The position numbers and the translations under genes were made by a program. A stretch of 64,000 nucleotides of DNA from the NCBI RefSeq assembly GCF_015351105.1, contig NZ_JADKRR010000001.1, positions 2,027,069 to 2,091,068 of the forward strand. Direction: 5' to 3'. A model generated the notes under the pieces. It had not been told where the DNA came from, made no database searches, and saw nothing but the letters and a program-made list of their open reading frames with translations. Shown here piece by piece: positions 23,861-37,093 of this stretch. Numbering within the stretch: position 1 is the stretch's first letter; each line of letters begins with the position of its first letter. The DNA comes from Clavibacter sp. VKM Ac-2872 (GTDB taxonomy: Bacteria; Actinomycetota; Actinomycetes; Actinomycetales; Microbacteriaceae).

Positions 23861-25246
23861 TCAGCGGGAGGAGGCGCGCGGCTCGTCGCCGAGCTCGCCC
23901 GAGCGCGTGACGTCCGCCTCGAGGGCCTGGGCCGGGGCCGCGAGCCGGGCGTCGTGCTCGGTGCCCATGCTCTTCTCGTCGAAGGGGTCGCCGCCGCCGA
24001 GGACGAGCGCGACCCGGTCGGCGTCGATGCCGCGGGTCCAGGTGCCGATGAGGAGGGTCGCGACCGCGTTGCCGGTGAAGTTCGTGAGGGCGCGCGCCTC
24101 CGACATGAAGCGGTCGATGCCGACGATGAGCCCGACGCCGTCCACCAGGTCGGGGCGGTGCGACTGCAGGCCGCCCGCGAGGGTCGCGAGGCCCGCTCCC
24201 GTGACGCCCGCCGCGCCCTTCGACGCGATGATCATGAAGACGAGGAGCGACACCTGCTCGCCGAGGGCCAGCGGGCTGCCGAGCGCGCGCGCGATGAAGA
24301 GCGACGCCATCGTGAGGTAGATCGCCGTGCCGTCGAGGTTGAACGAGTAGCCCGTGGGCACGGTGATGCCGACGACGGGCTTGGAGACGCCCACGTGCTC
24401 CATCTTCGCGATGAGGCGCGGCAGCGCGACCTCCGACGACGACGTCGAGACGATGAGGAGGTACTCGCGGCCGAGGTACCGCATGAGCTTGAAGATGTTG
24501 ACGCGGGCGACGAGCCACAGGAGCGTGCCCAGGATCACCACGATGAACAGCGCGCACGTGATGTAGAAGCCGATCATGAGGGTCGCGAGGCTGATGACGG
24601 CCTGGAACCCGGTGGCGCCGACGACCGCGGCGATGGCGCCGAACGCGCCGACAGGGGCCACCCACATCACCATGCTCAGGATGCGGAACACGAGGACCTG
24701 GATGTTGCGGATCCCCTCGAGCACGGGCTCGCCGCGCTTCCCCAGCTGCTGCAGCGCGAAGCCGACGAGGAGCGCCACGAAGAGGGTCTGCAGGATGCTG
24801 CCCGAGGTGAGCGACGAGAGCAGCGACGTCGGGATGATCGAGAGGAGGAAGTCCGTCTCGCCGGTCGCCTCCGTCGAGCCCGCCGGCGCGCGCAGGCCGC
24901 TCAGGTCGAGGCCGTCGCCCGGGTGGATGAGGTTGCCGACGACGAGGCCGATCGCGAGCGCGAACGTCGACATGACGATGAAGTAGAGGAGCGCGAGGCC
25001 GCCGACGCGACCCACGGTGGCCGCCTTCGCGACCGAGCCGACACCGAGCACGATGGTGCAGAAGATGATGGGCGCGATCATCATCTTGATGAGGGCCACG
25101 AACGCGTCGCCGATGGGCTTCAGCGCCACGCCCGTCTCGGGGGCGACGAGCCCGACCGTGACGCCCAGGATCACCGCGACGATGACGGCGATGTAGAGGT
25201 AGTGCTGGCGGTCCAGGCGGCGGAGCGCGGCGATGGGGTGGGTCAT
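23861..25246 (-). CDS. dctA: DctA-type C4-dicarboxylate/cation symporter
   Basis: This 461-residue member of the dicarboxylate/amino acid:cation symporter family has eight or so membrane segments and two re-entrant hairpins. Family marks include SSSEVALPRLIAKMEHVGV, then VVGITVPTGYSFNLDGTAIY and the C-terminal TNFTGNAVATLLIGTW. Likely substrates are succinate, fumarate and malate taken up with cations. The ATG at 25246 was chosen because the first membrane helix follows at residue 16; longer in-frame extensions overlap the divergent sensor gene. A two-component system of the dicarboxylate-sensing type is transcribed divergently 138 bases away and probably controls it. Confidence 0.92.
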   Translation of the reverse strand: MTHPIAALRRLDRQHYLYIAVIVAVILGVTVGLVAPETGVALKPIGDAFVALIKMMIAPIIFCTIVLGVGSVAKAATVGRVGGLALLYFIVMSTFALAIGLVVGNLIHPGDGLDLSGLRAPAGSTEATGETDFLLSIIPTSLLSSLTSGSILQTLFVALLVGFALQQLGKRGEPVLEGIRNIQVLVFRILSMVMWVAPVGAFGAIAAVVGATGFQAVISLATLMIGFYITCALFIVVILGTLLWLVARVNIFKLMRYLGREYLLIVSTSSSEVALPRLIAKMEHVGVSKPVVGITVPTGYSFNLDGTAIYLTMASLFIARALGSPLALGEQVSLLVFMIIASKGAAGVTGAGLATLAGGLQSHRPDLVDGVGLIVGIDRFMSEARALTNFTGNAVATLLIGTWTRGIDADRVALVLGGGDPFDEKSMGTEHDARLAAPAQALEADVTRSGELGDEPRASSR

Positions 25247-25384
25247 GGGACGTCCTTGTCTCGTGAGCGGCGCCGGCGCACGGGTGCACCAGGCGGTCCT
25301 CGCCAGGATGGCCCACGCGCGGGGGCGCTCCGGCGTTGTGTTCATAATGTTCCTGCCGGGTGTCGGCGGACGCGAGGGGGCAGC

Positions 25385-27145
25385 ATGGCGCGACGCGCGC
25401 TCGCCGAGCCGCCCCGTCCCCCGCGGACGGTCCGCCCCCGGGTGGGCCTCCCCCGCGGCATCGCCGCCCGGCTGCTGGTCGTCCAGCTCGCGGTCCTGCT
25501 CCTCGTCGCCGTCGTCGCGACCACGGCGCTCTGGGCCGACTCGCGGCAGCGCGCCGAGCAGGCCGCGGCGGACCGGAGCCTGGCCGTCGCGACGACCGTG
25601 GCCGACTCGCCGCGGGTGGCGGAGGGGCTCGCGTCCGCGGATCCCACGGCCGCCCTGCTCGACTACTCGCTCGACGTGACGCGCGACACCGGGGTCGACT
25701 TCGTCACGATCATGGACCGCGACACCGTGCGCGTGACCCACCCGGACCCCGACGAGATCGGCCGCAGGTACCTCGGCACGACGGGACCCGCGCTCGCCGG
25801 GCGGTCGCTGACCGAGACCTTCACGGGGACGCTCGGGCCGAGCGTGCGCGCGGTGGTGCCCGTGCGCGGCGCGGACGGCGGCATCGTGGGGCTGGTCGCG
25901 GCCGGCGTCACCGTCGACCGCGTCACGGAGGTGCTCGGCGCGCGCCTGCCGGGGCTCGTCGGCACGGTCGGGGCGCTCGCGCTCCTCCTCGCGGCCGGGG
26001 CCGTGCTCCTCAGCCGCTCGCTCGAGCGGACGACGTGGGGGCTGGGGCCCGAGGAGATGGCGCGCATGCTCGCGTACTACGAGTCGGTGCTGCACTCCGT
26101 CGGCGAGGGGATCGTGCTCGTCGACCGCGACCGTCGGCTCGTGCTGCACAACGACCAGGCGGCCGAGCTGCTCGACCTGGAGCTCGATCCCGCCTCAGGT
26201 CCCGTCGAGGTCCGCGCGCTGGGGCTGCCGCCCGCGATCGAGCGGCTGCTCCTCGAGGGCGCCACGGCCGACGAGGTCGTGCACCTGCCGGGAGGGCGCG
26301 TCCTCGTCGTGACGCAGCGGCCCGCGCTGCCCACCGGCCGCACCGGGAGCGCCGCGCGGCTCGGCACGGTGACGACGCTGCGCGACCGGACCGAGATCCA
26401 GCGCCTCTCGGGCGAGCTCGCGACGCTGCGCACCCTCTCCGACGCCATGCGCGCGCAGACCCACGAGTTCGCCAACCGGCTGCACACGATCGTGTCGCTC
26501 ATCGAGCTGGAGCGGCCCCGCGAGGCGCTCGCCCTCGCGGCGGCGGAGCTCGAGACGGATCGCCGCGCGTCGGAGGGCGGGCTGGCGGCGGAGGCGGATC
26601 CCGTGGTGCGGGCGCTCGTGCGCGGCAAGACGGCGCAGGCGGCCGAGCGCGGCGTGGAGCTGTCGGTGCGCGTCGCCGCGGGGACGGGCGACCCGGCCGT
26701 GCCCGCGACGGAGCTCGTGACGATCGTGGGGAACCTCGTGGACAACGCCATCGACGCGGCCGCCGACCCGTCCGTCGCGACGGCGCGCGGGGACGACCGC
26801 GGGCGGGTGGAGCTGTCGCTGTCGCGGACGGAGGCGGGCGGGCTCGTCGTCGAGGTGGCGGACGACGGGCCGGGCGTGGATCCCGCGGTGCGGCCGCGCG
26901 TGCTGGAGTTCGGGGTCACGACCAAGTCGGGCGACGGCGGACCGCGCGGAGTGGGGCTGGCGCTCGTGGCGCGCTCGGCCGCGCGGCTCGGCGGGCGGGT
27001 GGAGGTGGGCGACGCCGACGCGCCGCTGGGCGGGGCGCGCGTGCGGGTCGTGCTGCCCGCGGATCCCGCCGCCGACTCCCGGGCGGACGACCCGACCGGC
27101 CTCCGCGACGGCGACGGCGCCCACGACGGCGGGGTCCCCGCGTGA
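25385..27145 (+). CDS. CitA/DcuS-type sensor histidine kinase
   Basis: A membrane sensor kinase of 586 residues. One membrane helix (about 29-51) is followed by an extracytoplasmic PAS-like sensor domain, a second helix (about 195-215) and a cytoplasmic PAS domain. The dimerisation helix carries the phospho-accepting His360 in THEFANRLHT. The ATPase domain has NLVDNAIDAA (N box) and GDGGPRGVGLALV (G box). This layout matches kinases that sense citrate or C4-dicarboxylates outside the cell. GGGGGCAGC precedes the ATG at 25385. The divergent dctA gene supports a dicarboxylate signal; the exact ligand is inferred. Confidence 0.9.
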   Translation: MARRALAEPPRPPRTVRPRVGLPRGIAARLLVVQLAVLLLVAVVATTALWADSRQRAEQAAADRSLAVATTVADSPRVAEGLASADPTAALLDYSLDVTRDTGVDFVTIMDRDTVRVTHPDPDEIGRRYLGTTGPALAGRSLTETFTGTLGPSVRAVVPVRGADGGIVGLVAAGVTVDRVTEVLGARLPGLVGTVGALALLLAAGAVLLSRSLERTTWGLGPEEMARMLAYYESVLHSVGEGIVLVDRDRRLVLHNDQAAELLDLELDPASGPVEVRALGLPPAIERLLLEGATADEVVHLPGGRVLVVTQRPALPTGRTGSAARLGTVTTLRDRTEIQRLSGELATLRTLSDAMRAQTHEFANRLHTIVSLIELERPREALALAAAELETDRRASEGGLAAEADPVVRALVRGKTAQAAERGVELSVRVAAGTGDPAVPATELVTIVGNLVDNAIDAAADPSVATARGDDRGRVELSLSRTEAGGLVVEVADDGPGVDPAVRPRVLEFGVTTKSGDGGPRGVGLALVARSAARLGGRVEVGDADAPLGGARVRVVLPADPAADSRADDPTGLRDGDGAHDGGVPA

Positions 27146-27846
27146 TCCGGGTGCTGGTCGTGGACGACGACGCGCTGACCGCCGAGGCCCACGCCCTCTA
27201 CGTCGGTCGGCTCGAGGGATTCCAGGTCGCCGGCGTCGCGCACACGGGCGGTGAGGCGCTCCGGCGCGTGGCGGAGGCCGGGCCGGACGGGATCGACCTG
27301 GTCCTGCTCGACATGACGCTGCCCGACATGCACGGCCTCGAGGTGTGCCGCCGCCTCCGCGCCGCCGGACGCGCGACCGACGTCGTGGCCGTGACCGCGG
27401 TGCGCGACCAGGCCGTCGTCCGCAGCTCGGTGACGGCGGGCATCGTGCAGTACCTCATCAAGCCGTTCACGTTCGCGGCCTTCGCCGAGAAGATGGCGGC
27501 GTACGTCGGCTACCGCGAGGGGCTCGGCGCGGGCAGCGGCAGCACGACCCAGCTGCAGGTGGACCGGGCGCTCGCGGCGCTGCGCTCCCCCGCGGCCGAC
27601 GCGCGCCTCCCCAAGGGCATGTCGGCGGAGACGCTCGACCTCGTGCGCGGGATCGCGCAGGGCGACGGATCCGCGAGGGCTGCCGCCGAGGGCGTCTCGG
27701 CCGCGGAGGTGTCGGGCGCGCTCGACGTGTCGCGCGTGACGGCGCGTCGGTACCTCGAGTACCTGGCCGACGTGGGTCAGGTGGAGCGGGTGCCGCGCTA
27801 CGGCACGCCCGGCCGGCCCGAGCTCGGGTACCGCTGGACGAGCTGA
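27142..27846 (+). CDS. CitB/DcuR-type response regulator
   Basis: This 234-residue response regulator starts at a GTG that overlaps the kinase stop (GTGA). The receiver domain has the acidic pocket VVDDD (7-10), phosphorylated Asp57 in LVLLDMTLPDMHG and a conserved Lys in YLIKPF near 107. The C-terminal helix-turn-helix (VSAAEVSGALDVSRVTARRY) is of the DcuR/CitB kind, not OmpR or NarL. With the adjoining kinase it should activate dctA, which faces the other way beyond the sensor gene. Confidence 0.92.
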   Translation: MIRVLVVDDDALTAEAHALYVGRLEGFQVAGVAHTGGEALRRVAEAGPDGIDLVLLDMTLPDMHGLEVCRRLRAAGRATDVVAVTAVRDQAVVRSSVTAGIVQYLIKPFTFAAFAEKMAAYVGYREGLGAGSGSTTQLQVDRALAALRSPAADARLPKGMSAETLDLVRGIAQGDGSARAAAEGVSAAEVSGALDVSRVTARRYLEYLADVGQVERVPRYGTPGRPELGYRWTS

Positions 27847-28986: not shown

Positions 28987-29259
28987 GTGGAGATCGCCGT
29001 GTCGCGCACGGGCGGGGTGACGGGCATGACCCGCACCTGGTCGGTGCGCGTGGACGACGGCGCGGCCGAGTGGGACGACCTCGTGGACGCCTGCCCGTGG
29101 GACGAGCCCGCCGTGCCCGCGCCGGGCGCCGACCGCTTCGTCTACCTCGTGCGCGCGGGCGACCGCGAGGCGCGCCTCGGCGAGGCCGCGGTCGACGGCC
29201 CGTGGCGTCGGCTCGTCGACCGGGTGCGCGACGCGTCCCGTGAGAGCCTCGGAGGATGA
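28987..29259 (+). CDS. Emfourin-like inhibitor of M4 proteases
   Basis: This 90-residue protein starts with GTG directly after the protease stop codon. The pattern (IAVSRTGGVTGMTRTWSV near the start, then PAPGADRFVYLV and a helical end PWRRLVDRVRDASRE) fits emfourin, a slow tight-binding inhibitor encoded beside protealysins. Its likely role is to keep the neighbouring M4 protease inactive in the cytoplasm. The assignment rests on sequence pattern and operon context. The zero-base spacing points to translational coupling and matched amounts of enzyme and inhibitor. The next gene overlaps its stop by 4 bases. Confidence 0.85.
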   Translation: MEIAVSRTGGVTGMTRTWSVRVDDGAAEWDDLVDACPWDEPAVPAPGADRFVYLVRAGDREARLGEAAVDGPWRRLVDRVRDASRESLGG

Positions 29260-30116
29260 CGCCGCCTCCTCCCGCCGACGACCGCTACGGACAGGACGTG
29301 CTCGCCGCCGGCTGGCGCGGCCCCGCGAAGAAGGCCCCGCGGCCGCAGGACGCGACGCGCGACCTCGTGGTCGAGGAGCTGTCCACCGGGTTCTGCGGCG
29401 CGATCGTCCGCGTCGAGTCGGGGATGGTCGTGCTCGAGGACTACAAGCGGAAGCAGCGCACGTTCCCGCTCGGCGGGTCCTTCCTGCTCGAGGGCGAGCC
29501 CGTCGCCCTGCGCGTGCCCCGCGCCGCGCCCGCCGGTCCTGCGCGGACGGCCTCCGGATCGCTCGCGGTCGCCGACCGGCAGGCCCGCGTGGCGCTGCCC
29601 AGCCGGATCTTCGTGGAGGGCCGGCACGACGCCGAGCTCGTGGAGAAGGTGTGGGGCGAGGACCTCCGCATCGAGGGCGTCGTCGTCGAGTACCTCGAGG
29701 GCGTCGACCACCTCGACGAGGAGCTCGACCGCTTCCGCCCCGGGAAGGGGCGCCGCGTGGGCGTGCTCGTCGACCACCTCGTGCCCGGGTCCAAGGAGAG
29801 CCGGATCGCCGAGGCCGTCGCCCGCGGACCGCACCGGGCGCACGCGCTCGTGGTCGGGCACCCCTACGTGGACGTCTGGCAGTCGGTGAAGCCCGGGCGG
29901 CTCGGCCTCCGCGAGTGGCCCGTGATCCCGCGGAACGTCGAGTGGAAGCACGGCATCTGCGCTGCGCTCGGCTGGCCGCACGACGAGCAGGCGGACATCG
30001 CGCGGGCGTGGCAGCGGATCCTCGGGCAGGTGCGCTCGTACCAGGACCTCGAGCCGGCGCTGCTCGGCCGGGTGGAGCAGCTCATCGACTTCGTGACGGA
30101 CCCCGCGGGGCGCTAG
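29256..30116 (+). CDS. DUF3097 family protein
   Basis: This 286-residue protein belongs to DUF3097, a conserved actinobacterial family of unknown function. Recognisable segments are DYKRKQRTFPLGGSFLLEG in the N-terminal half, RIFVEGRHDAELVEKVWGED in the middle and GVLVDHLVPGSKES. The central part has the look of a Toprim-like nuclease or primase fold, with its acidic residues in VEGRHDAE and VLVDH, but activity has not been shown to my knowledge. The start ATG overlaps the emfourin stop (ATGA), although no functional link to the protease pair is evident. Confidence 0.87.
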   Translation: MTPPPPADDRYGQDVLAAGWRGPAKKAPRPQDATRDLVVEELSTGFCGAIVRVESGMVVLEDYKRKQRTFPLGGSFLLEGEPVALRVPRAAPAGPARTASGSLAVADRQARVALPSRIFVEGRHDAELVEKVWGEDLRIEGVVVEYLEGVDHLDEELDRFRPGKGRRVGVLVDHLVPGSKESRIAEAVARGPHRAHALVVGHPYVDVWQSVKPGRLGLREWPVIPRNVEWKHGICAALGWPHDEQADIARAWQRILGQVRSYQDLEPALLGRVEQLIDFVTDPAGR

Positions 30117-30125
30117 CGCCGCGGA

Positions 30126-31199
30126 TCAGGCGGGCGCGGCCGCCGTGTCGCCGATGCGCACGTGCACCGGCAGCACGACGTCCGCCGGCGCCCGGCCCGC
30201 GAGCAGCTCGCCGACCATGCGCCCGGCGCGCACCCCGCGGTCGTGCAGCGGCTGCTCCACGGTCGTGAGCTGGCGCTCGAGCCACGGCAGGTGCGCGCCG
30301 TCGAAGCCCGTGACGGTGAGGTCCTCGGGCACGCGCAGGCCGCGGGCCGCGGCGGCGCGGATGGCGCTCGCGGCGAGCATGTCGTTCTGCGCGAGGATCG
30401 CCGTGGGCCGCGACGGCAGGTCGAGCAGCACGCCCGCGGCGCGCTCCCCCGCCTCCAGGTCGCGCCCGCCCGCCTCGACGCGCACGGCGTCGGGGAAGAC
30501 GCTGCGCGCGGCGCGGAGCCGCTCGCGGATCGTGCGGTTGACGATCTCCTCGAGACCGCGTCCCACGGGGATCACGGGGCCGGGCGGGCCGTCCTCCTCG
30601 ATCCGCGTGGTGCGCATCAGCACGGCGACGCGGCGGTGGCCGAGGGCGCGCACATGACGGGCGAGCTCGCCCATGCCGCGGGCGTCGTCGATGTCGACCA
30701 CGGCGACGCCCTCCCCGTGCGGGCCCTCGACGCCGACCATGGGGATCCGTCGCGCGCGCAGCCCGGGCAGGAGCGCGTCCACCTCCTCGCCGCGGGTGAG
30801 GAACACGACGGCGTCGACGGGCATGCCCTCGAGCAGGGGCGCGGATCCCTCGCGCGGCTCCCGTCGGCCCGGCAGCAGCAGCTGGCCCACGTCGAGCTCG
30901 TCGAGCGCCTCGCTGAGGCCCGCCATCGTCGCGAGCGCCACCGGGTTCTGGAACGCCCGGCGGATGCTGCCGGCGACCACGACGCCGACGATGCCGGTGC
31001 GGCCGCTCTTGAGGGACCTGGCCGTGGGATCCGGCCCCGCGTAGCCGATGCTGGCCGCGGCGCGCAGGATCCGGGCGCGGGTGGCGGGCGTGATCGAGCC
31101 GGTGCTGCGGTACGCGAGCGACGCCGTGGAGGTCGAGACGCCCGCGAGGGCGGCCACGTCGGCGAGGGTCACGGAGGTGCGCGGCGAGTTCCTCCTCAT
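30126..31199 (-). CDS. LacI family transcriptional regulator
   Basis: This 357-residue repressor-type regulator starts with a helix-turn-helix at about 10-35 (VTLADVAALAGVSTSTASLA). The hinge follows near 60 and a periplasmic-binding-protein-like ligand domain fills the rest. Such proteins control nearby uptake genes in response to a sugar-like ligand. It is divergent from the ABC import operon and probably represses it. The ATG at 31199 lies 7 bases after a TAGGGT -10 element, so its mRNA is probably leaderless. Two overlapping palindromes in the gap are candidate operators. The ligand is unknown; a polyol or glycerophosphodiester would fit the operon. Confidence 0.9.
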   Translation of the reverse strand: MRRNSPRTSVTLADVAALAGVSTSTASLAYRSTGSITPATRARILRAAASIGYAGPDPTARSLKSGRTGIVGVVVAGSIRRAFQNPVALATMAGLSEALDELDVGQLLLPGRREPREGSAPLLEGMPVDAVVFLTRGEEVDALLPGLRARRIPMVGVEGPHGEGVAVVDIDDARGMGELARHVRALGHRRVAVLMRTTRIEEDGPPGPVIPVGRGLEEIVNRTIRERLRAARSVFPDAVRVEAGGRDLEAGERAAGVLLDLPSRPTAILAQNDMLAASAIRAAAARGLRVPEDLTVTGFDGAHLPWLERQLTTVEQPLHDRGVRAGRMVGELLAGRAPADVVLPVHVRIGDTAAAPA

Positions 31200-31206
31200 G
31201 CGCCCC

Positions 31207-31212
31207 ACCCTA
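31207..31212 (-). promoter_or_regulatory. -10 element of the LacI-type regulator gene
   Basis: TAGGGT on the minus strand ends 7 bases before the ATG at 31199, again predicting a leaderless transcript. Confidence 0.6.
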
Positions 31213-31301
31213 TTGAGGCCCGGTCGGCCGCCGCGCGCGTTCGCCGCCGGGGACCGCGATCGCCACGTCCCGTTCACCCGCGGGCCACCGCGGCACCGCA
31301 C

Positions 31302-31326
31302 CATCGAAACGATGCGATCCGCATCG
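31302..31326. promoter_or_regulatory. Candidate operator: two overlapping palindromes
   Basis: CATCG-AAA-CGATG (31302-31314) and CGATGCG-ATC-CGCATCG (31310-31326) are two perfect inverted repeats that share five bases. They lie in the divergent gap between the LacI-type regulator and the ABC operon, 28 bases before the binding-protein start. The size suits a LacI-family operator. Binding is inferred from position only. Confidence 0.5.
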
Positions 31327-31353
31327 CTCCCCCAGCAGAAGGACACCCGACCC

Positions 31354-32520
31354 GTGATCCCCCGCCGTTCCCTCCTCGCCCTCGCCGCCGCCGCGTCCGC
31401 CGCGGTCGCGCTCGCGGGCTGCGCTCCCACCACGAGCACGCAGGCCCAGGCCCAGAACCACGCCGTCACCGACGCATCGGGTACCGCCCGCGTCTTCATC
31501 TCCGGCGACACCAACGTCCAGGCCCTCTGGGACGACGGGATCATCCCCGCGTTCGAGAAGGCGAACCCCGGCGCGTCCGTCACCACGACGCTCGACCTCC
31601 ACGGCGAGCACGACGCCCAGACCATGGCCACGCTCACCAGCTCGGTGCAGGGCGGATCCGACCCCGGCTACGACCTCATCGACGCGGGCTTCACCGCCGC
31701 GGCCGGCACCGGCGGGCTCCTCGCGCCCGTCTCCGCCGACACCATCCCGAACCTCGCGACCGTGCCCGACGCGACCGTCCAGTCCGGCGGCGGCTTCGGG
31801 ATCCCCTACCGCGCCTCGTCCGTGCTGCTCGCCTACGACTCCACGAAGGTGACCGACCCGCCCAAGACGCTCTCCGACCTGCTCTCCTGGATCCGCGCCA
31901 ACCCCGGCCAGTTCGCCTACAACTCCCCCTCCACCGGCGGATCCGGCCAGGCCTTCGTCACGACCGTCCTCGACACCCACGTCGACGACGCCACGCGCGA
32001 GAAGATGACGACCGGCTACGACCAGTCGCTCGAGAGCGCGTGGGACGCGGGCTTCGACGAGCTCAAGGGACTGAACTCCGCCATGTACCAGGGCGGCGTC
32101 TACCCCAACGGCAACAACCAGGTGCTCGACCTCCTGGGCACGGGCGCCATCGAGATGGCCCCGGTCTGGAGCGACCAGGTCATCACCGCGCAGAAGTCGG
32201 GCACGCTCCCGGCGACCGTCAAGTACGCGCAGATCTCCGACCCGGCGTTCACCGGCCACGCGTCCTTCCTGGGCATCCCCAAGACCGCCGAGCACCAGGA
32301 CGTCGCGCAGAAGCTCGCCGACTACGTGCTCTCCGCCGAGGGCCAGGCCATCATCGCCAGCACCATCGCGGGCTACCCGGTGATCTCCCTCGACCAGGTG
32401 CCCGCGGACCTCAAGGACCAGTTCGCCTCGGCCGACCCGTCGACGCTGCGCCCCGGCTACTACAGCCAGATGGCGTCGGACATGTCGAACCTCTGGGACC
32501 AGAAGGTCCCCGGCCAGTGA
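31354..32520 (+). CDS. ABC transporter substrate-binding lipoprotein
   Basis: This 388-residue extracellular solute-binding protein (family 1 type) has a short signal peptide ending in the lipobox LAGC (Cys23 from the GTG at 31354). An AGAAGGA ribosome-binding site lies about 9 bases upstream; an ATG further upstream lacks one. The mature protein captures the substrate outside the membrane. Ligand-contact segments such as GFGIPYRASSVLLAYDSTKV and AYNSPSTGGSG do not identify the substrate. The operon context (two permeases, an ATPase and a GDPD-IMPase fusion) suggests a glycerophosphodiester. It overlaps the permease start as GTGA. Confidence 0.88.
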   Translation: MIPRRSLLALAAAASAAVALAGCAPTTSTQAQAQNHAVTDASGTARVFISGDTNVQALWDDGIIPAFEKANPGASVTTTLDLHGEHDAQTMATLTSSVQGGSDPGYDLIDAGFTAAAGTGGLLAPVSADTIPNLATVPDATVQSGGGFGIPYRASSVLLAYDSTKVTDPPKTLSDLLSWIRANPGQFAYNSPSTGGSGQAFVTTVLDTHVDDATREKMTTGYDQSLESAWDAGFDELKGLNSAMYQGGVYPNGNNQVLDLLGTGAIEMAPVWSDQVITAQKSGTLPATVKYAQISDPAFTGHASFLGIPKTAEHQDVAQKLADYVLSAEGQAIIASTIAGYPVISLDQVPADLKDQFASADPSTLRPGYYSQMASDMSNLWDQKVPGQ

Positions 32521-33470
32521 CGGCCGTCCGGACGGCGGATCCCGCCGCCCGGGCCGCCCGCGCGCGGCGGGTCTCCCCGGAGACCCGCCGCGCCGGCGTC
32601 GGCCTGGCGCTCGCCCTCCCGCCCGCGCTCCTGCTGGCGTTCTTCGTCGGGATCCCCGTCGTGCTCGCCATCGGATTCAGCCTCGGCCACACGGGCGGCC
32701 TCAACAGCACGATCGCCACGATCGGCCTCGGGACCCGCACCGCGACGAGCTGGTGGGGGACGTTCGACGCCTACGTCGACGTGTTCACCGACCCGCGGTT
32801 CCTCCGCGACCTCGGCGTGACGGTCGTCGTGACCGTCCTCTCGACCGCGATCGTCATCGCCCTGTCCCTGGCGATCGCCCTCAATCTCCGCCTCCGCGGT
32901 GGCCGGCTCGCGTCCCTGTTCGCCGGGCTCGCGATCGTTCCCCTCTTCATCCCCGTGGTCATCGCGTCGTGGGCGATCCTCACCTTCTACTCGGGCGACG
33001 GCTTCGTGCGCACGGTCTTCGCGCTCGTCGGCCTCGACGGGCCGACGTGGGGCTACACGACCGTCGCGGTGGTCATCGGATCCGTGTGGACGAGCCTCCC
33101 GTTCGCCACGCTCATGGCGACCTCCGGCGTGCAGGGCATCCCGGACGCCATGATCGAGGCCGCGCGCGACGCGGGCGCCTCGACGTGGGCCATCGTCACG
33201 CGGGTGCTCGTGCCGCTCGCCGCCATCCCGCTCGTCATCGCGACGACGTTCACGGCGATCGGCGTGCTCGGCTCCTTCACGGTGCCGTACTTCACCGGGC
33301 CGAACGCGCCCAGCATGCTCGGCGTCGACATCTCGAAGTACTTCACGGGCTTCAACCACCCGCAGCAGTCGATCGTGATGGCGGTCGTGGTGTTCGTCCT
33401 CGCATCGGGCATCGCGTTCCTCTACGTCCGGGCCAACTTCCGGTCCGCGAAGAAGGAGGGCCGGGTCTGA
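32517..33470 (+). CDS. ABC transporter permease, first subunit
   Basis: A 317-residue inner-membrane permease with about six helices. The conserved cytoplasmic loop that docks the ATPase reads EAARDAGASTWAIVTRVLVP near residue 215. It starts with a GTG overlapping the binding-protein stop by 4 bases and ends overlapping the second permease by one base (TGATG), so the subunits are made together. The fold is that of importers for polyols, thiamine, iron, phosphonates and glycerol phosphates; the sequence alone does not choose between them. Confidence 0.9.
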   Translation: MTAVRTADPAARAARARRVSPETRRAGVGLALALPPALLLAFFVGIPVVLAIGFSLGHTGGLNSTIATIGLGTRTATSWWGTFDAYVDVFTDPRFLRDLGVTVVVTVLSTAIVIALSLAIALNLRLRGGRLASLFAGLAIVPLFIPVVIASWAILTFYSGDGFVRTVFALVGLDGPTWGYTTVAVVIGSVWTSLPFATLMATSGVQGIPDAMIEAARDAGASTWAIVTRVLVPLAAIPLVIATTFTAIGVLGSFTVPYFTGPNAPSMLGVDISKYFTGFNHPQQSIVMAVVVFVLASGIAFLYVRANFRSAKKEGRV

Positions 33471-34285
33471 TGCGCGCTCTCCTCTCCGCCCGCGGGTGGA
33501 TCCAGGCGGCCCTGTTCGCGGTCGTCGCGGTCTTCATCCTCGGCCCGCTGCTCTGGCTCGCGGCGCACGCGTTCGCGACGAGCTGGGACTACCCGAGCCT
33601 CGTGCCCGCCGGCCTCACGCTCGACTGGTGGCGCGTGGTGTTCGAGGACGCCGAGCTCGCCGCGGCCGTCCGCAACTCGCTGTACTTCGCGCCCATCACG
33701 GTGCTCGTCTCGGCCCTGGTGTGCCTGCCGGCCGCGTACGCGTTCTCGCGGTTCTCGTTCCCGGGCCGGCGGATCCTGCTGGTGGGCCTGTTCGCCACCA
33801 ACGCGTTCCCCAAGATGGGCCTCTTCGTGTCGATGGCGTCCCTGTTCTACGGGCTGCACCTCATGAACACGATCACGGGCATCGTCATCGTGCAGCTCAT
33901 CGGGACCGTCGTGTTCATGACCTGGATCCCGGCCGCCGCGTTCAGCGCCGTGCCGCGCTCCCTCGAGGAGGCCGCGCGCGACGCGGGCGCCGGACGCGTG
34001 CGGACGTTCCTGCACGTGACCCTGCCGCTCGCGCTGCCCGGGATCCTCGTGGCCGTGCTCATGTCGTTCCTCGCCGCGTTCGACGAGGCGCAGGGCACCT
34101 ACCTCGTGGGCGCGCCCGTCTACATGACGATGCCGACCGAGATGTACTCGCTCGTCCTCAACCACCCGAAGCAGGTCGCCGCCGTGTTCGCGATCCTCCT
34201 CTCCGTCCCCTCCGTCGCCCTCCTCCTGCTCGCCCGCCGCCACATCATGGGCGGGCGTCTGGCCGAGGGCTTCCAGATCCGTTAG
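33470..34285 (+). CDS. ABC transporter permease, second subunit
   Basis: This 271-residue permease has six predicted helices and the ATPase-docking loop EEAARDAGAGRVRTFLHVTLPL near residue 170. It pairs with the preceding permease to form the membrane pore. The C-terminus (GGRLAEGFQIR) is that of MalG/UgpE-like subunits, which handle sugars and glycerol phosphates, consistent with the last gene of the operon. Seven bases separate it from the ATPase gene. Confidence 0.9.
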   Translation: MRALLSARGWIQAALFAVVAVFILGPLLWLAAHAFATSWDYPSLVPAGLTLDWWRVVFEDAELAAAVRNSLYFAPITVLVSALVCLPAAYAFSRFSFPGRRILLVGLFATNAFPKMGLFVSMASLFYGLHLMNTITGIVIVQLIGTVVFMTWIPAAAFSAVPRSLEEAARDAGAGRVRTFLHVTLPLALPGILVAVLMSFLAAFDEAQGTYLVGAPVYMTMPTEMYSLVLNHPKQVAAVFAILLSVPSVALLLLARRHIMGGRLAEGFQIR

Positions 34286-34292
34286 GCCGGCC

Positions 34293-35489
34293 ATGACCGC
34301 ATCCGCCCCATCCACCACCACCGCCGCTCCCCCGCGCGTCCACGACGACGGCACCGCTGGCGCCTCGCCGTCCGGCCTCGTCGTCCAGGGCCTGTCCAAG
34401 GACCTCGGCGGCCGCACCATCGTCGACGACCTCCACCTCGACGTCGCGCGCGGCGAGCTCGTCGCGCTCCTCGGCCCGTCGGGCTGCGGCAAGACCACGA
34501 CGCTCCGCATGATCGCCGGGTTCCTCGAGCCCGACCGCGGATCCGTGGTCATCGGCGGCCGGGACGTCACCGCGTCCGGCCCCGACAAGCGGCCGAGCGC
34601 GATGGTGTTCCAGAACTACGCGCTCTGGCCGCACCTCACGGTGTTCAAGAACGTCGCCTTCCCGCTCACGCTGCGGAAGCTGCCGAAGGACGAGGTCGCC
34701 CGTCGGGTCATGGCCGCGCTCGAGACCGTGAACCTCGCGCACCACGCGCACTCGCGGCCCGCGCACATCTCGGGCGGCGAGCAGCAGCGCGCGGCACTCG
34801 CCCGCGCGATCGTGCAGGAGCCCGACCTGCTGCTCCTCGACGAGCCGCTGTCGAACCTCGACGCGAAGCTGCGCGTGAAGGTGCGCGAGGAGATCCGCGA
34901 CATCCAGCAGCGGCTGGGGATCACGACCGTCATGGTCACGCACGACCAGGACGAGGCGCTCGCGATCTCCGACCGCGTCGCCGTGATGCACCAGGGCCGC
35001 ATCGAGCAGGTGTCGGCCCCGACCGAGCTCTACGCCCGGCCGCGGACCCTCGTGGTCGCGTCGTTCATCGGCAGCATGAACCTGCTGCCGACGCCGCGCC
35101 TGCAGGGCACGACGCCCGAGACGCTCACGGCCGGCCCGCCCCAGGCCTTCGTCCCGACCTCCGCGGACGCGGACGTCTGGGCCGTCCGCCCCGAGGACGT
35201 GTCCTACGCGCCGCGCGGGACGCGTCCCGAGCCCGACGCGACGTCCGTCGTCGTGCGCCGCGTGCTGCCGCACGGCCACTTCCAGGAGCTCGTGCTCGAC
35301 GCGGGCGGCGTGGAGGTCCGCGCGCTCGTCACCGGATCCGCGCCCGCGGTCGGCGAGGCCGGCACCGTGACGCTCCGGGCGGTGCGGCACTACCGGGACG
35401 GGATCCTCGTGCCCGACCGGGCAACGCCCGTGGCATCCGACGCGCCCGCCGCATCCACCGCGACCGCCGCATCGGACGACGCGCGATGA
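34293..35489 (+). CDS. ABC transporter ATP-binding protein
   Basis: This 398-residue ATPase powers the importer. It has Walker A GPSGCGKTT (61-69), signature ISGGEQQR (159-166), Walker B LLLLDEP (179-185) and a His switch in MVTHDQDEALAISD. A C-terminal TOBE-type domain (about 260-380) is present, as in MalK and UgpC, where it takes part in regulation. About 30 low-complexity residues come before the fold. The stop overlaps the start of the GDPD-IMPase gene (ATGA). Confidence 0.92.
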   Translation: MTASAPSTTTAAPPRVHDDGTAGASPSGLVVQGLSKDLGGRTIVDDLHLDVARGELVALLGPSGCGKTTTLRMIAGFLEPDRGSVVIGGRDVTASGPDKRPSAMVFQNYALWPHLTVFKNVAFPLTLRKLPKDEVARRVMAALETVNLAHHAHSRPAHISGGEQQRAALARAIVQEPDLLLLDEPLSNLDAKLRVKVREEIRDIQQRLGITTVMVTHDQDEALAISDRVAVMHQGRIEQVSAPTELYARPRTLVVASFIGSMNLLPTPRLQGTTPETLTAGPPQAFVPTSADADVWAVRPEDVSYAPRGTRPEPDATSVVVRRVLPHGHFQELVLDAGGVEVRALVTGSAPAVGEAGTVTLRAVRHYRDGILVPDRATPVASDAPAASTATAASDDAR

Positions 35490-37093
35490 CGGCCGCGACC
35501 GCGCACCGCGGCGACTCCTCCCGTCACCGCGAGAACACGCTCGCCGCCATCCGCTCGGCGGCCGAGGCCGGCGCGCGGACGGTGGAGGTCGACGTCCAGG
35601 TGACGCGCGACGGCGCGGTCGTCCTCCTCCACGACGACACGCTCGACCGCCTCTGGGGCGTCGACGCGCGGGTCCGGGACCTCGACCTCGCCGACGTGCG
35701 CGCGCTCGGCGGCGGCCAGCTGCGGATCCCCCTGCTCGCCGAGGCGCTCGAGCTCCTCGCCGGCACGGACGTCGAGCTCGTGATCGACATGGCGTCCGGG
35801 GATCCGGCCGCCGCCGCCCTCGCGGTCGTGGCCGCCGCGCCGCGCACGCCGCGCGTCGCCTGGTGCGGTCACCTCGACGGGATGCGCACCATCCGCGAGC
35901 TCGACCCGGCCGCCGTGATCTGGCTGCCCTGGGCCGACCCGCAGCCGCCCACCGCGGACGACCTCGCGGAGCTCCGGCCGGCGGTCGTCAACATGCCGCA
36001 CCTGATCGTCGGGCGCGCCCTCGTGGACGCCGTGCACGCCCTCGGCGCCGGCGTCACCTGCTGGACCGTCGACGAGCCGTCGCAGATGGAGTGGCTCGCG
36101 TCCATCGGCGTGGACGCGATCACGACGAACGAGCTGGCGACGCTCCTCGACGTGCTCGCGCGCCGGGCCGCGGATCCCGCCGCCGCGGATGCCCGCGCGT
36201 CCGCCCCCTCCGCCGAGCGCGCCCGGGCCCGCGCCGCGGCGCGCGACCTCGCGGCGCGCGCCGTGCACCACGTCCGCTCGCACGCGGTCGGCGCCGTCAC
36301 GACGAAGGCGAACCCCGCCGACCACGTCACGGAGATCGACCGGGCCGTCGAGCGCGACGTGCGCGCGGTCGTCGGTGCGCAGTTCCCGCACCACGTGCTC
36401 GTCGGGGAGGAGTACGGCGGCGAGGCCGTGCCCGGTCGCCCGTGCTGGTACCTGGACCCGGTCGACGGCACCGCGAACCTCGCGAACGGCGTGCCGTGGA
36501 CGAGCTTCTCGCTCGCCCTCGTGGTCGACGGCGAACCCGTGGTGGGCGTCGTGGCGGACCCCTGGCGCGGCACGGTCGTCGAGGCCGCTGCCGGCGAGGG
36601 CGCGTGGTCCGCCGGCGCGCGCCTCGACCTGTCGACCGAGCCGGGCGGCGTGCACGCGCCCGACGCGGATCCGCTGCGCGGCCGGATGGTGAGCACCGAG
36701 CTCGCCGGGCACGCGCCCTGGCCGGGCATGCTGCCGCTGCTCGACGCGCTCGCCGCGCGCTGGTGCACGCTGCGGATCATGGGGTCCGGCACGCTCACGG
36801 TCGCCGGCATCGCGCTCGGCCACGGCGCGGGCGCGGTGATCGGCTCGTTCGGGCCCGTCGACCACCTCGCCGCGACGCTCATCGTGCGGGAGGCCGGAGG
36901 CGTGGTGCTCGACGCGGACGGCGAGGACACGCTGTTCCCGGCATCGGGGGGCGTGCTCGCGGCCCGCGACCGCCCGACCGCGGAGGCCCTGCACGCGCTC
37001 TGGCGCACGGGGATCGTCGAGGCGACGTCCGCCGCCGTGGCCATGGGCGCGACGGCCGGGTCGGCGACGGCCGAGCGGGCTCCCGCGGCCTAG
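35486..37093 (+). CDS. Fusion of glycerophosphodiester phosphodiesterase and inositol monophosphatase
   Basis: A 535-residue two-domain enzyme. Residues 1-225 are a GDPD barrel that hydrolyses glycerophosphodiesters. Its catalytic set is visible: HRGDSS with His7 and Arg8, the ENT at 16-18, Glu35 and Asp37 (VEVD), and His50. Residues 240-520 are an inositol-monophosphatase fold with GEEYGG (metal-binding Glu), DPVDGT (324-329) and the distal Asp459 in GPVDHLAA. There is no signal peptide, so both steps occur in the cytosol after import. The fusion suggests glycerophosphoinositol is split to an inositol phosphate and then dephosphorylated; other phosphodiesters are possible. It ends in a CTAG shared with the convergent gene. 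Confidence 0.88.
   Translation: MTAATAHRGDSSRHRENTLAAIRSAAEAGARTVEVDVQVTRDGAVVLLHDDTLDRLWGVDARVRDLDLADVRALGGGQLRIPLLAEALELLAGTDVELVIDMASGDPAAAALAVVAAAPRTPRVAWCGHLDGMRTIRELDPAAVIWLPWADPQPPTADDLAELRPAVVNMPHLIVGRALVDAVHALGAGVTCWTVDEPSQMEWLASIGVDAITTNELATLLDVLARRAADPAAADARASAPSAERARARAAARDLAARAVHHVRSHAVGAVTTKANPADHVTEIDRAVERDVRAVVGAQFPHHVLVGEEYGGEAVPGRPCWYLDPVDGTANLANGVPWTSFSLALVVDGEPVVGVVADPWRGTVVEAAAGEGAWSAGARLDLSTEPGGVHAPDADPLRGRMVSTELAGHAPWPGMLPLLDALAARWCTLRIMGSGTLTVAGIALGHGAGAVIGSFGPVDHLAATLIVREAGGVVLDADGEDTLFPASGGVLAARDRPTAEALHALWRTGIVEATSAAVAMGATAGSATAERAPAA

What the first reader, a model, noticed from the sequence alone, without database searches (positions are those of the whole stretch)
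30126..37093. LacI-controlled importer ending in a GDPD-inositol monophosphatase fusion: a possible glycerophosphoinositol uptake and degradation system
Seen: a lipoprotein binding protein, two permeases, an ATPase and one 535-residue protein with complete GDPD and IMPase catalytic motifs, linked by stop-start overlaps or a 7-base gap, plus a divergent LacI-type regulator. Known: GDPD splits glycerophosphodiesters and IMPase frees inositol from inositol phosphate. Inference: the fusion would channel glycerophosphoinositol, a breakdown product of plant and fungal phosphoinositides, to inositol, glycerol phosphate and phosphate. I do not know of this exact five-gene unit being described. It would suit a plant-associated actinobacterium.
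Basis: partly seen in the sequence, partly recalled or inferred. Interest (0 to 1): 0.75.

Follow-up and report, generated by a model that had tools for sequence, protein, structure and literature searches.

The report
Phosphodiester importer with fused two-step hydrolase
A bacterium of the plant-dwelling genus Clavibacter carries a compact gene set that most likely imports a small phosphate-linked molecule, perhaps one containing inositol, and takes it apart with one two-headed enzyme; related bacteria share the set, but its cargo has not been measured.

Summary
In detail: a divergent LacI regulator, lipoprotein binding protein, two permeases, ATPase and a 535-residue GDPD-IMPase fusion. Named relatives place the window in Clavibacter. 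The unit is not chance: 53 of 62 loci holding a fusion, or one of its halves, have the importer beside it, and the LacI gap holds operator sites that, in nine genomes, occur 15 times there and once elsewhere.

Relatives of the importer in Deinococcus, Enterococcus and Alphaproteobacteria sit by GDPD, IMPase, CehA/McbA or another phosphodiesterase gene in six of seven plasmid loci opened, so the cargo is probably a phosphodiester.

Inositol is favoured because some relatives place the operon by iol genes. Against: the IMPase half lacks the glutamate that contacts inositol in canonical enzymes (24 of 24), and some holders lack iolD. The logic resembles the agrocinopine acc operon. Verdict: new variant of a known kind; substrate unproven.

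The parts
30126..31199 (-). LacI-family repressor, 357 aa, divergent from the operon
   Evidence: Pfam LacI and Peripla_BP_3 over cut-off; ATG start read from the sequence; at 50% identity or more beside the operon in 30 of 62 loci
31259..31274 (.). upstream LacI-type operator site, weakened copy (2 mismatches to ATCGMAACGDTBCGWT)
   Evidence: alone not beyond chance, but at the same 44-base spacing as sites in relatives
31303..31318 (.). main LacI-type operator ATCGAAACGATGCGAT
   Evidence: 0 mismatches; only exact match in the own genome; a 0-mismatch site in all 30 LacI-bearing rows
31357..32520 (+). lipoprotein solute-binding protein, SBP_bac_8/YnjB-like
   Evidence: alignment A1
32517..33470 (+). 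permease A
33470..34285 (+). permease B
34293..35489 (+). ATPase; best NCBIfam PhnT2 (345.4 bits, below its cut-off of 457.7)
35486..37093 (+). GDPD-IMPase fusion, 535 aa
35504..36136 (+). GDPD domain (residues 7-217): H7, E34, D36, H49; third metal position is D101, not the usual E
36236..37000 (+). IMPase-type domain (residues 251-505): E308/E309, D324-P-V-D327-G-T, D459; I452 in place of the inositol-contacting Glu

Best explanation
A locally regulated phosphodiester uptake and two-step breakdown unit. The lipoprotein captures a small phosphodiester outside the cell; permeases A and B with the ATPase bring it in intact; the GDPD half cuts one ester bond and the IMPase half removes the phosphate left on one product, so that one polypeptide yields two alcohols plus phosphate. 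LacI, sitting on sites between the divergent genes, keeps the unit off until an inducer (the cargo or its monophosphate product) binds. The most likely cargo is an inositol phosphodiester, simplest glycerophosphoinositol from phosphatidylinositol of plants, fungi or other actinobacteria, giving glycerol, myo-inositol and phosphate, the inositol entering the iol pathway encoded elsewhere in the same genome. Shown: gene content, order, conservation, conserved catalytic residues, operator-like sites, iol genes in the genome. Inferred: phosphodiester cargo (about 0.85), inositol-containing cargo (about 0.5), exactly glycerophosphoinositol (about 0.35), the order of the two cuts, repression and induction.
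For: Unit conserved and its genes diverge in step (distance correlations 0.69-0.93 between separate genes, or between a gene and either half of the fusion; 22 loci; inflated by shared species history). Catalytic residues lost only in rows without the importer: 2 of 3 such rows against 0 of 21 with it. Homologous importers in other phyla beside phosphoesterases in 6 of 7 plasmid loci that I opened, picked by hand for taxonomic spread out of 140 records (A. vitis is the exception). Ketogulonicigenium has the same design unfused: divergent LacI-type gene, SBP, two permeases, ATPase, GDPD, convergent IMPase. An actinobacterial MAG keeps GDPD and IMPase as separate neighbouring ORFs behind the same importer (L095). 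Inositol: in G240 the operon follows iolC (379 bits) and iolB (214 bits), both over cut-off, iolD in two pieces, an IolE-like and an IolG-like gene; IolE/IolG-like genes also near it in L074 and L082 and, more weakly, L069. The own genome has iolC, MMSDH, iolB, iolD and IolG over cut-offs and an IolE-like gene. iolD over cut-off in 19 of 24 match-bearing genomes against 6 of 15 others (the 15 were taken from the head of a list, not at random, and kinship is not corrected for).
Against: The Glu that contacts inositol in canonical IMPases (role recalled) is Ile or Val in 24 of 24, whereas the separate IMPases of the Rhizobium, Marinovum and pAtAG67 operons keep it. The GDPD half lacks the insertion seen in AccF-type enzymes and has Asp for the third metal Glu, so its cut is not predictable. 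G017 (same genus) and three of the four Agreia genomes tested keep the fusion without iolD over cut-off. In Clavibacter the iol cluster lies about 1.3 Mb away on the same contig. Only 4 of 62 rows have iol-type genes in the stretch examined, one of them weakly. No solved structure is close enough to read a ligand. No structure model could be made.
Confidence: 0.52

Rival explanations
1. General glycerophosphodiester scavenger: the GDPD half makes glycerol 3-phosphate plus any alcohol and the IMPase half acts as a glycerol-phosphate phosphatase, so the unit feeds on phosphate and glycerol whatever the head group.
For: Explains the missing inositol Glu and holders without iolD; a route of glycerophosphodiesterase then glycerol-3-phosphate phosphatase is described for M. 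tuberculosis (PMC12722247, passages seen); in G1068 the operon lies near dihydroxyacetone kinase-like genes and in G1020 near a secreted GDPD-like gene (named by eye from the sequence).
Against: iol genes beside the operon in a few relatives; a LacI with private operator sites rather than a phosphate-starvation switch; the GDPD half lacks the segment seen in 2pz0- and AccF-type enzymes.
Confidence: 0.22
2. Sugar-phosphodiester (opine-like) catabolism, as in the acc operon: the cargo is a sugar-phosphate-sugar compound, cut by GDPD to a sugar phosphate and dephosphorylated by the IMPase half.
For: acc genes have the same enzyme pair, overlapping (L101); pAtAG67 has ATPase, two permeases, SBP, GDPD, IMPase and a sucrose phosphorylase (L102), its SBP a distant relative of the window's (26% over 191 residues); AccG also lacks the inositol Glu; AvrBs2, a GDPD-derived enzyme, makes a sugar phosphodiester in plants (PMC12807533, parts 1-2 of 5 read).
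Against: GDPD half is not AccF-like; the closer importer relatives are not the acc or pAtAG67 ones; spread over many genera not known to me as gall or plant pathogens; iol neighbours.
Confidence: 0.15
3. The importer carries something else (ferric iron, polyamine, aminoethylphosphonate) and the fusion is a loosely attached housekeeping enzyme.
For: Best solved-structure matches of the SBP profile are ferric-binding HitA (E 1.4e-6), a family-1 SBP of unstated ligand and polyamine-binding proteins, all weak; nearest NCBIfam model of the ATPase is PhnT2.
Against: Conserved coupling of fusion and importer, catalytic damage only where the importer is gone, phosphoesterase neighbours in other phyla.
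Confidence: 0.06

Closest known systems
acc operon of agrocinopine catabolism (AccR, AccA-E, AccF, AccG), Agrobacterium
   Same: Repressor, ABC importer, GDPD-type phosphodiesterase and IMPase-type phosphatase in one unit, the two enzyme genes overlapping by 8 bases; AccF cuts the imported phosphodiester and a product phosphate binds the repressor AccR (PMC4526662, passages seen)
   Different: Importer is of the dipeptide type with five subunits, regulator DeoR/GlpR-type, enzymes unfused; AccF has the usual ELK motif and insertion that the fusion lacks
Importer relatives with GDPD and IMPase in Ketogulonicigenium vulgare (L134) and with GDPD and CehA/McbA in Deinococcus aetherius (L130)
   Same: Homologous SBP (33.5% and 40%), permeases and ATPase; GDPD next to the ATPase; in L134 a divergent LacI-type gene and a neighbouring IMPase
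   Different: GDPD and IMPase separate, or IMPase absent; GDPDs not close to the fusion's; their function is not described in any paper listing I saw
UgpB/UgpABCE glycerophosphodiester importers
   Same: ABC import of glycerophosphodiesters; Mtb UgpB is reported to bind glycerophosphodiesters (PMC8603345, passages seen)
   Different: Ugp models fall below cut-off and are not the best matches of these permeases and ATPase; here the binding protein is SBP_bac_8/YnjB-like
GpxB glycerol-1-phosphate importer of marine bacteria
   Same: A transporter for a lipid-derived organophosphate outside the Ugp family (PMC12718374, part 1 of 6 and search passages)
   Different: Its structures 9LF9/9LFB do not appear among the 31 matches of the SBP profile as listed; cargo is a monoester

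Membership tests
GDPD (glycerophosphodiester phosphodiesterase family) | Pfam GDPD domain with HR..EN, ExD and HD motifs | tested here: met
   137.7 bits; H7 23, E34 24, D36 24, H49 24 of 24
GDPD (glycerophosphodiester phosphodiesterase family) | Third metal ligand Glu with E-x-K motif, and the insertion after the HD motif | tested here: not met
   D101 in 23 of 24 and no Lys two on; insertion absent next to AccF and pAtAG67 GDPD and 2pz0; lowers the claim of a canonical glycerophosphodiesterase, not of GDPD-type chemistry
GDPD (glycerophosphodiester phosphodiesterase family) | Hydrolysis of glycerophosphodiesters | not testable with these tools
   needs assay
Inositol monophosphatase (EC 3.1.3.25) | Metal motifs EE, DPxDGT and late Asp | tested here: met
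   E308 23, E309 24, D324 24, D327 24, D459 24 of 24
Inositol monophosphatase (EC 3.1.3.25) | Glu (human 213, recalled) seven before the late Asp, contacting inositol | tested here: not met
   I452: Ile 15, Val 9 of 24; 2qfl, an inositol-1-monophosphatase, has Glu there
Inositol monophosphatase (EC 3.1.3.25) | NCBIfam cut-off for a named IMPase-type enzyme | tested here: not met
   best are HisN 103.1 bits (cut-off 275.15) and inositol-1-monophosphatase 81.3 bits (cut-off 332)
acc-type agrocinopine system | importer + GDPD + IMPase under a local repressor | tested here: met
acc-type agrocinopine system | AccA-type (cluster C) binding protein and DeoR/GlpR repressor | tested here: not met
   SBP_bac_8 and LacI; AccA gave no match to the SBP at E up to 1
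Ugp glycerol-3-phosphate importer | UgpA/E/B/C models over cut-off | tested here: not met
   UgpA 28.7 (permease A), UgpE 25.2 (permease B), UgpC 306.9 bits, all below cut-off; no UgpB match listed
2-aminoethylphosphonate importer (PhnS, PhnT2, PhnU2) | equivalog models over cut-off | tested here: not met
   PhnT2 345.4 against 457.7; PhnU2 60.8 against 593.25; PhnS 24.4 against 395.3
LacI-family local repressor | LacI HTH plus ligand domain, and palindromic sites at its own operon | tested here: met
   binding and repression themselves not testable here

The most novel reading that the evidence does not exclude
A dedicated bacterial uptake and mineralisation system for inositol phosphodiesters: a little-studied importer family plus a single bifunctional enzyme whose modified GDPD half works as an inositol phosphodiesterase and hands inositol phosphate (or glycerol phosphate) to its own phosphatase half, feeding free inositol to the iol pathway. 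It would join phosphatidylinositol turnover in soil and on plants to bacterial carbon and phosphate nutrition.
Probability: 0.3. Interest if true: 0.65.

Novelty: new variant of a known kind. Interest (0 to 1): 0.45.

Why it matters
It turns an ABC transporter family without an assigned cargo, found here in actinobacteria, Deinococcus, Enterococcus and Alphaproteobacteria, into a concrete prediction: phosphodiester uptake. If the cargo is glycerophosphoinositol it would give a bacterial route for using the head group of phosphatidylinositol, a lipid of plants, fungi and actinobacteria themselves, and a directly testable link between lipid turnover, inositol catabolism and phosphate supply.

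Tried and rejected
Sugar-phosphodiester reading as first choice: I began with the acc operon and xanthosan as models. Weakened when the GDPD half proved unlike AccF and iol genes turned up beside the operon in some relatives; kept as a rival.

Palindrome CGATGCGATCCGCATCG upstream of the binding protein as operator: set aside; a scan for palindromes found it or a near copy only in some Clavibacter and Agreia rows. The 16-base sites replaced it. Their pattern was drawn from the same gaps, so its presence there is partly by construction; the test is the genome search. In the window alone, allowing 2 mismatches, 2 of 100 shuffles gave as many matches.

Reading the ligand from solved structures: led nowhere, only weak matches.

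Phylum-wide SBP search: 2 of 396 genomes, one of them the own genome, but only 4 candidates per genome were scored among dozens, so I take no absence from it. The family and order searches scored at most 4 and 3 candidates per genome.

Plasmid search with the fusion: no fused relative, 0 of 70 records with 80% coverage. Papers: nothing on this five-gene unit or on the fusion in the listings; one search found no paper; on YnjBCD gave nothing of use. I saw these as listings with the starts of abstracts, and they cover only an open-licence library.

Single odd operator match in G251: it lies inside a predicted coding frame, so it is not read as a regulon member.


Full report
What is there. The window holds a divergent LacI gene (30126-31199, minus) and a tightly packed five-gene operon: lipoprotein binding protein (31357-32520), permease A (32517-33470), permease B (33470-34285), ATPase (34293-35489) and a GDPD-IMPase fusion (35486-37093). 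Pfam assigns each part over its cut-off. The own genome has 3.5 Mb in 12 contigs. The genus is Clavibacter, judged from the nearest named relatives, whose fusions are 84-94% identical; the species is not given.

How widespread. Counting the own genome, a match is found in 16 of 18 genomes of the genus (one of the 16, a fragmented assembly, shows only the first 248 residues), 24 of 299 sampled genomes of the family in 8 of 85 genera (one, G257, has the GDPD half only) and 8 of 396 of the order (two of these already counted). A scan of named genomes gave 42 loci: Clavibacter, Agreia, Frondihabitans, Cryobacterium, Arthrobacter, Paenarthrobacter, Pseudarthrobacter, Sinomonas, Microbacterium, Tessaracoccus, Occultella, Microlunatus, several MAGs, and two Streptomyces with only a GDPD match. 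Of 62 loci examined (L036-L097, some the same genome twice), 53 have importer genes in the same order beside it. The nine without are L050-L053, L081, L092, L094, L096, L097. Of six more loci five have the importer (L147 does not). In Microlunatus (L094) GDPD and IMPase are two genes overlapping by 4 bases, and in a MAG (L095) they are separate neighbouring ORFs behind the same importer (genes called by my own script), so the fusion may have joined two already neighbouring genes.

Is the enzyme intact? In 24 aligned fusions, the window's included (L040 left out), the GDPD positions H7, E34, D36, H49 and the IMPase positions E308, E309, D324, D327, D459 are each kept in 23 or 24 rows. Only L052 (H7, N17 and D101 changed) and L081 (E308 changed) deviate, and both lack the importer; of the three importer-less rows in that alignment two are damaged (L050 is not), of the 21 others none. 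That ties the enzyme's use to the importer, on small numbers.

Is the enzyme what its name says? Two departures. The third metal position of the GDPD half is Asp (D101, 23 of 24) where the solved GDPD 2pz0 has Glu, and the half lacks the insertion seen in AccF and the pAtAG67 GDPD. The IMPase half has Ile or Val (15 and 9 of 24) where the solved inositol-1-monophosphatase 2qfl has Glu, seven residues before the late Asp. From memory, the human counterpart, Glu213, contacts inositol. The separate IMPases of the Rhizobium, Marinovum and pAtAG67 operons keep this Glu; AccG does not. NCBIfam finds no named IMPase over cut-off; the best is HisN with 103 bits against 275. So the fold and metal chemistry are kept, while the substrate pocket is not the textbook one.

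Regulation. Between LacI and the binding protein gene lie two sites fitting ATCGMAACGDTBCGWT: 31303-31318 exact and 31259-31274 with two mismatches, 44 bases apart (with two mismatches allowed, 2 of 100 shuffled windows gave as many matches). All 30 rows with a LacI of at least 50% identity have a site without mismatch, and 27 of 30 have two or more sites within 2 mismatches (L055, L057 and L085 show one), spaced 33, 44, 58, 77 or 82 bases in the two-site rows. The pattern was drawn from these gaps, so the independent test is the genome search: in nine whole genomes the exact pattern occurs 16 times, 15 of them in this gap; the sixteenth lies inside a predicted coding frame; the reversed control pattern occurs 0 times. 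The LacI thus looks private to this operon. Arthrobacter, Paenarthrobacter and Cryobacterium loci have no such LacI; in G240 and L082 a GntR regulator sits upstream instead, and a 67% identical GntR lies in the iol region of the window's own genome (L112).

What the importer carries. Its nearest NCBIfam relatives (PhnT2, PotC, YnjB-type, PhnU2) all fall below their cut-offs and solved structures match weakly, so I looked at what its relatives in other phyla live beside. A plasmid search found 140 records; I opened seven, picked by hand for taxonomic spread. Deinococcus aetherius: SBP, permeases, ATPase, GDPD, divergent CehA/McbA metallohydrolase. Enterococcus faecium: GDPD, permease, ATPase, SBP, permease, then CehA/McbA. 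Rhizobium leguminosarum: SBP, permeases, ATPase, convergent IMPase. Ketogulonicigenium: divergent LacI-type gene, SBP, permeases, ATPase, GDPD, convergent IMPase. Phyllobacterium: ATPase, SBP, permeases, LacI, phosphodiesterase. Haematobacter: SBP, permeases, ATPase, CehA/McbA. Agrobacterium vitis: no phosphoesterase, but an isomerase and a Gfo/Idh dehydrogenase. So six of seven have a phosphoesterase or a likely one at hand, of different kinds. Identity to the window's SBP is 27-40% for the six compared by BLAST, and to permease B 43-53% where compared. Different phosphodiesterases beside one importer family argue that the shared thing is a phosphodiester cargo.

Why inositol. In G240 the operon directly follows an iol cluster: iolC (379 bits, over cut-off), a gene without a NCBIfam match, iolB (214 bits, over cut-off), iolD (in two pieces of 418 and 414 bits), an IolE-like gene (145 bits against a cut-off of 290) and an IolG-like gene (61 bits against 355), then the GntR regulator and the binding protein. 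The same IolE-like and IolG-like types lie near the operon in Paenarthrobacter DKR-5 (L074, about 9 kb on, past a second importer) and a Microbacterium MAG (L082); L069 has weaker matches. That is 4 of the 62 rows. The own genome has iolC, methylmalonate-semialdehyde dehydrogenase, iolB, iolD and IolG over cut-offs and an IolE-like gene, about 1.3 Mb from the operon. iolD is over cut-off in 19 of 24 match-bearing genomes and 6 of 15 others (the 15 were not a random draw). Against: G017 of the same genus and G093, G206 and G290 keep the fusion without iolD over cut-off, and 58 of 62 rows have no iol match in the stretch held (some stretches are short).

Chemistry. Glycerophosphoinositol has a single phosphate. 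A usual GDPD cut gives glycerol 3-phosphate and inositol; an inositol-phosphodiesterase cut gives glycerol and inositol phosphate. A following phosphatase removes the phosphate, so the end products are glycerol, inositol and phosphate. The missing inositol Glu leaves open that the phosphatase half acts on glycerol phosphate. Glycerophosphoinositol is not only a plant or fungal product: a glpQ1 mutant of M. tuberculosis accumulates it (PMC12722247, passages).

Known parallels. The acc operon carries importer, GDPD AccF and IMPase-like AccG with overlapping genes; AccF releases arabinose-2-phosphate, which binds the repressor AccR, and AccG is called a putative phosphatase (PMC4526662, passages). 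By analogy the LacI here may respond to the monophosphate. Plasmid pAtAG67 has a GDPD-IMPase pair overlapping by 53 bases behind an importer, and Rhizobium and Marinovum plasmids have importer, GDPD, regulator (LacI-type in Rhizobium) and IMPase in one run with another importer type. So importer + GDPD + IMPase seems to have been assembled more than once; the fusion, the importer family and the private paired sites are what is particular here. I saw no paper on the unit in the listings.

Verdict. Observation confirmed; interpretation partly supported; new variant of a known kind. Phosphodiester import about 0.85, inositol-containing cargo about 0.5, glycerophosphoinositol itself about 0.35. 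These are judgements, not computed values.

Noticed in passing
L052 (5046-6545), L081 (9941-11536): Two fusion copies without the importer show changed catalytic residues (GDPD half in L052, IMPase half in L081), as if the enzyme decays once the importer is gone; a third importer-less copy, L050, is intact.
   Followed up: partly
window 29256-30116 and L050 7790-8764, L052 8250-9194: The gene upstream of the LacI looks, by eye, like one near the fusion in importer-less L050 and L052, which suggests a shared chromosomal place and loss of the importer there in some species of genus g32.
   Followed up: no
L066 11521-12315; also L064, L067, L072, L074, L143 and others: A DUF6454 gene follows the fusion in the Arthrobacter, Pseudarthrobacter and Cryobacterium loci and in L074 and L143; its role in the unit is unknown.
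   Followed up: no
L082 18740-19993, L074 18849-20033, L130, L131, L136: CehA/McbA metallohydrolases turn up beside several importers of this family and beside a second importer next to the operon in L074 and L082; they may be an alternative phosphodiesterase.
   Followed up: partly
L099 (4311-11511), L103, L104: Rhizobium and Marinovum plasmids carry SBP, two permeases, ATPase, GDPD, a regulator and IMPase in one run with a different importer type: another version of the same design.
   Followed up: partly
L113 (G017:C1:700000-719000) against L112: One Clavibacter genome lacks iolD while genes beside its place in the window's genome are kept: apparent loss of inositol catabolism genes with the fusion operon retained.
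   Followed up: partly
window 23861-27846: A DctA-like dicarboxylate carrier divergent from a sensor kinase and response regulator pair (named by eye); ordinary.
   Followed up: no
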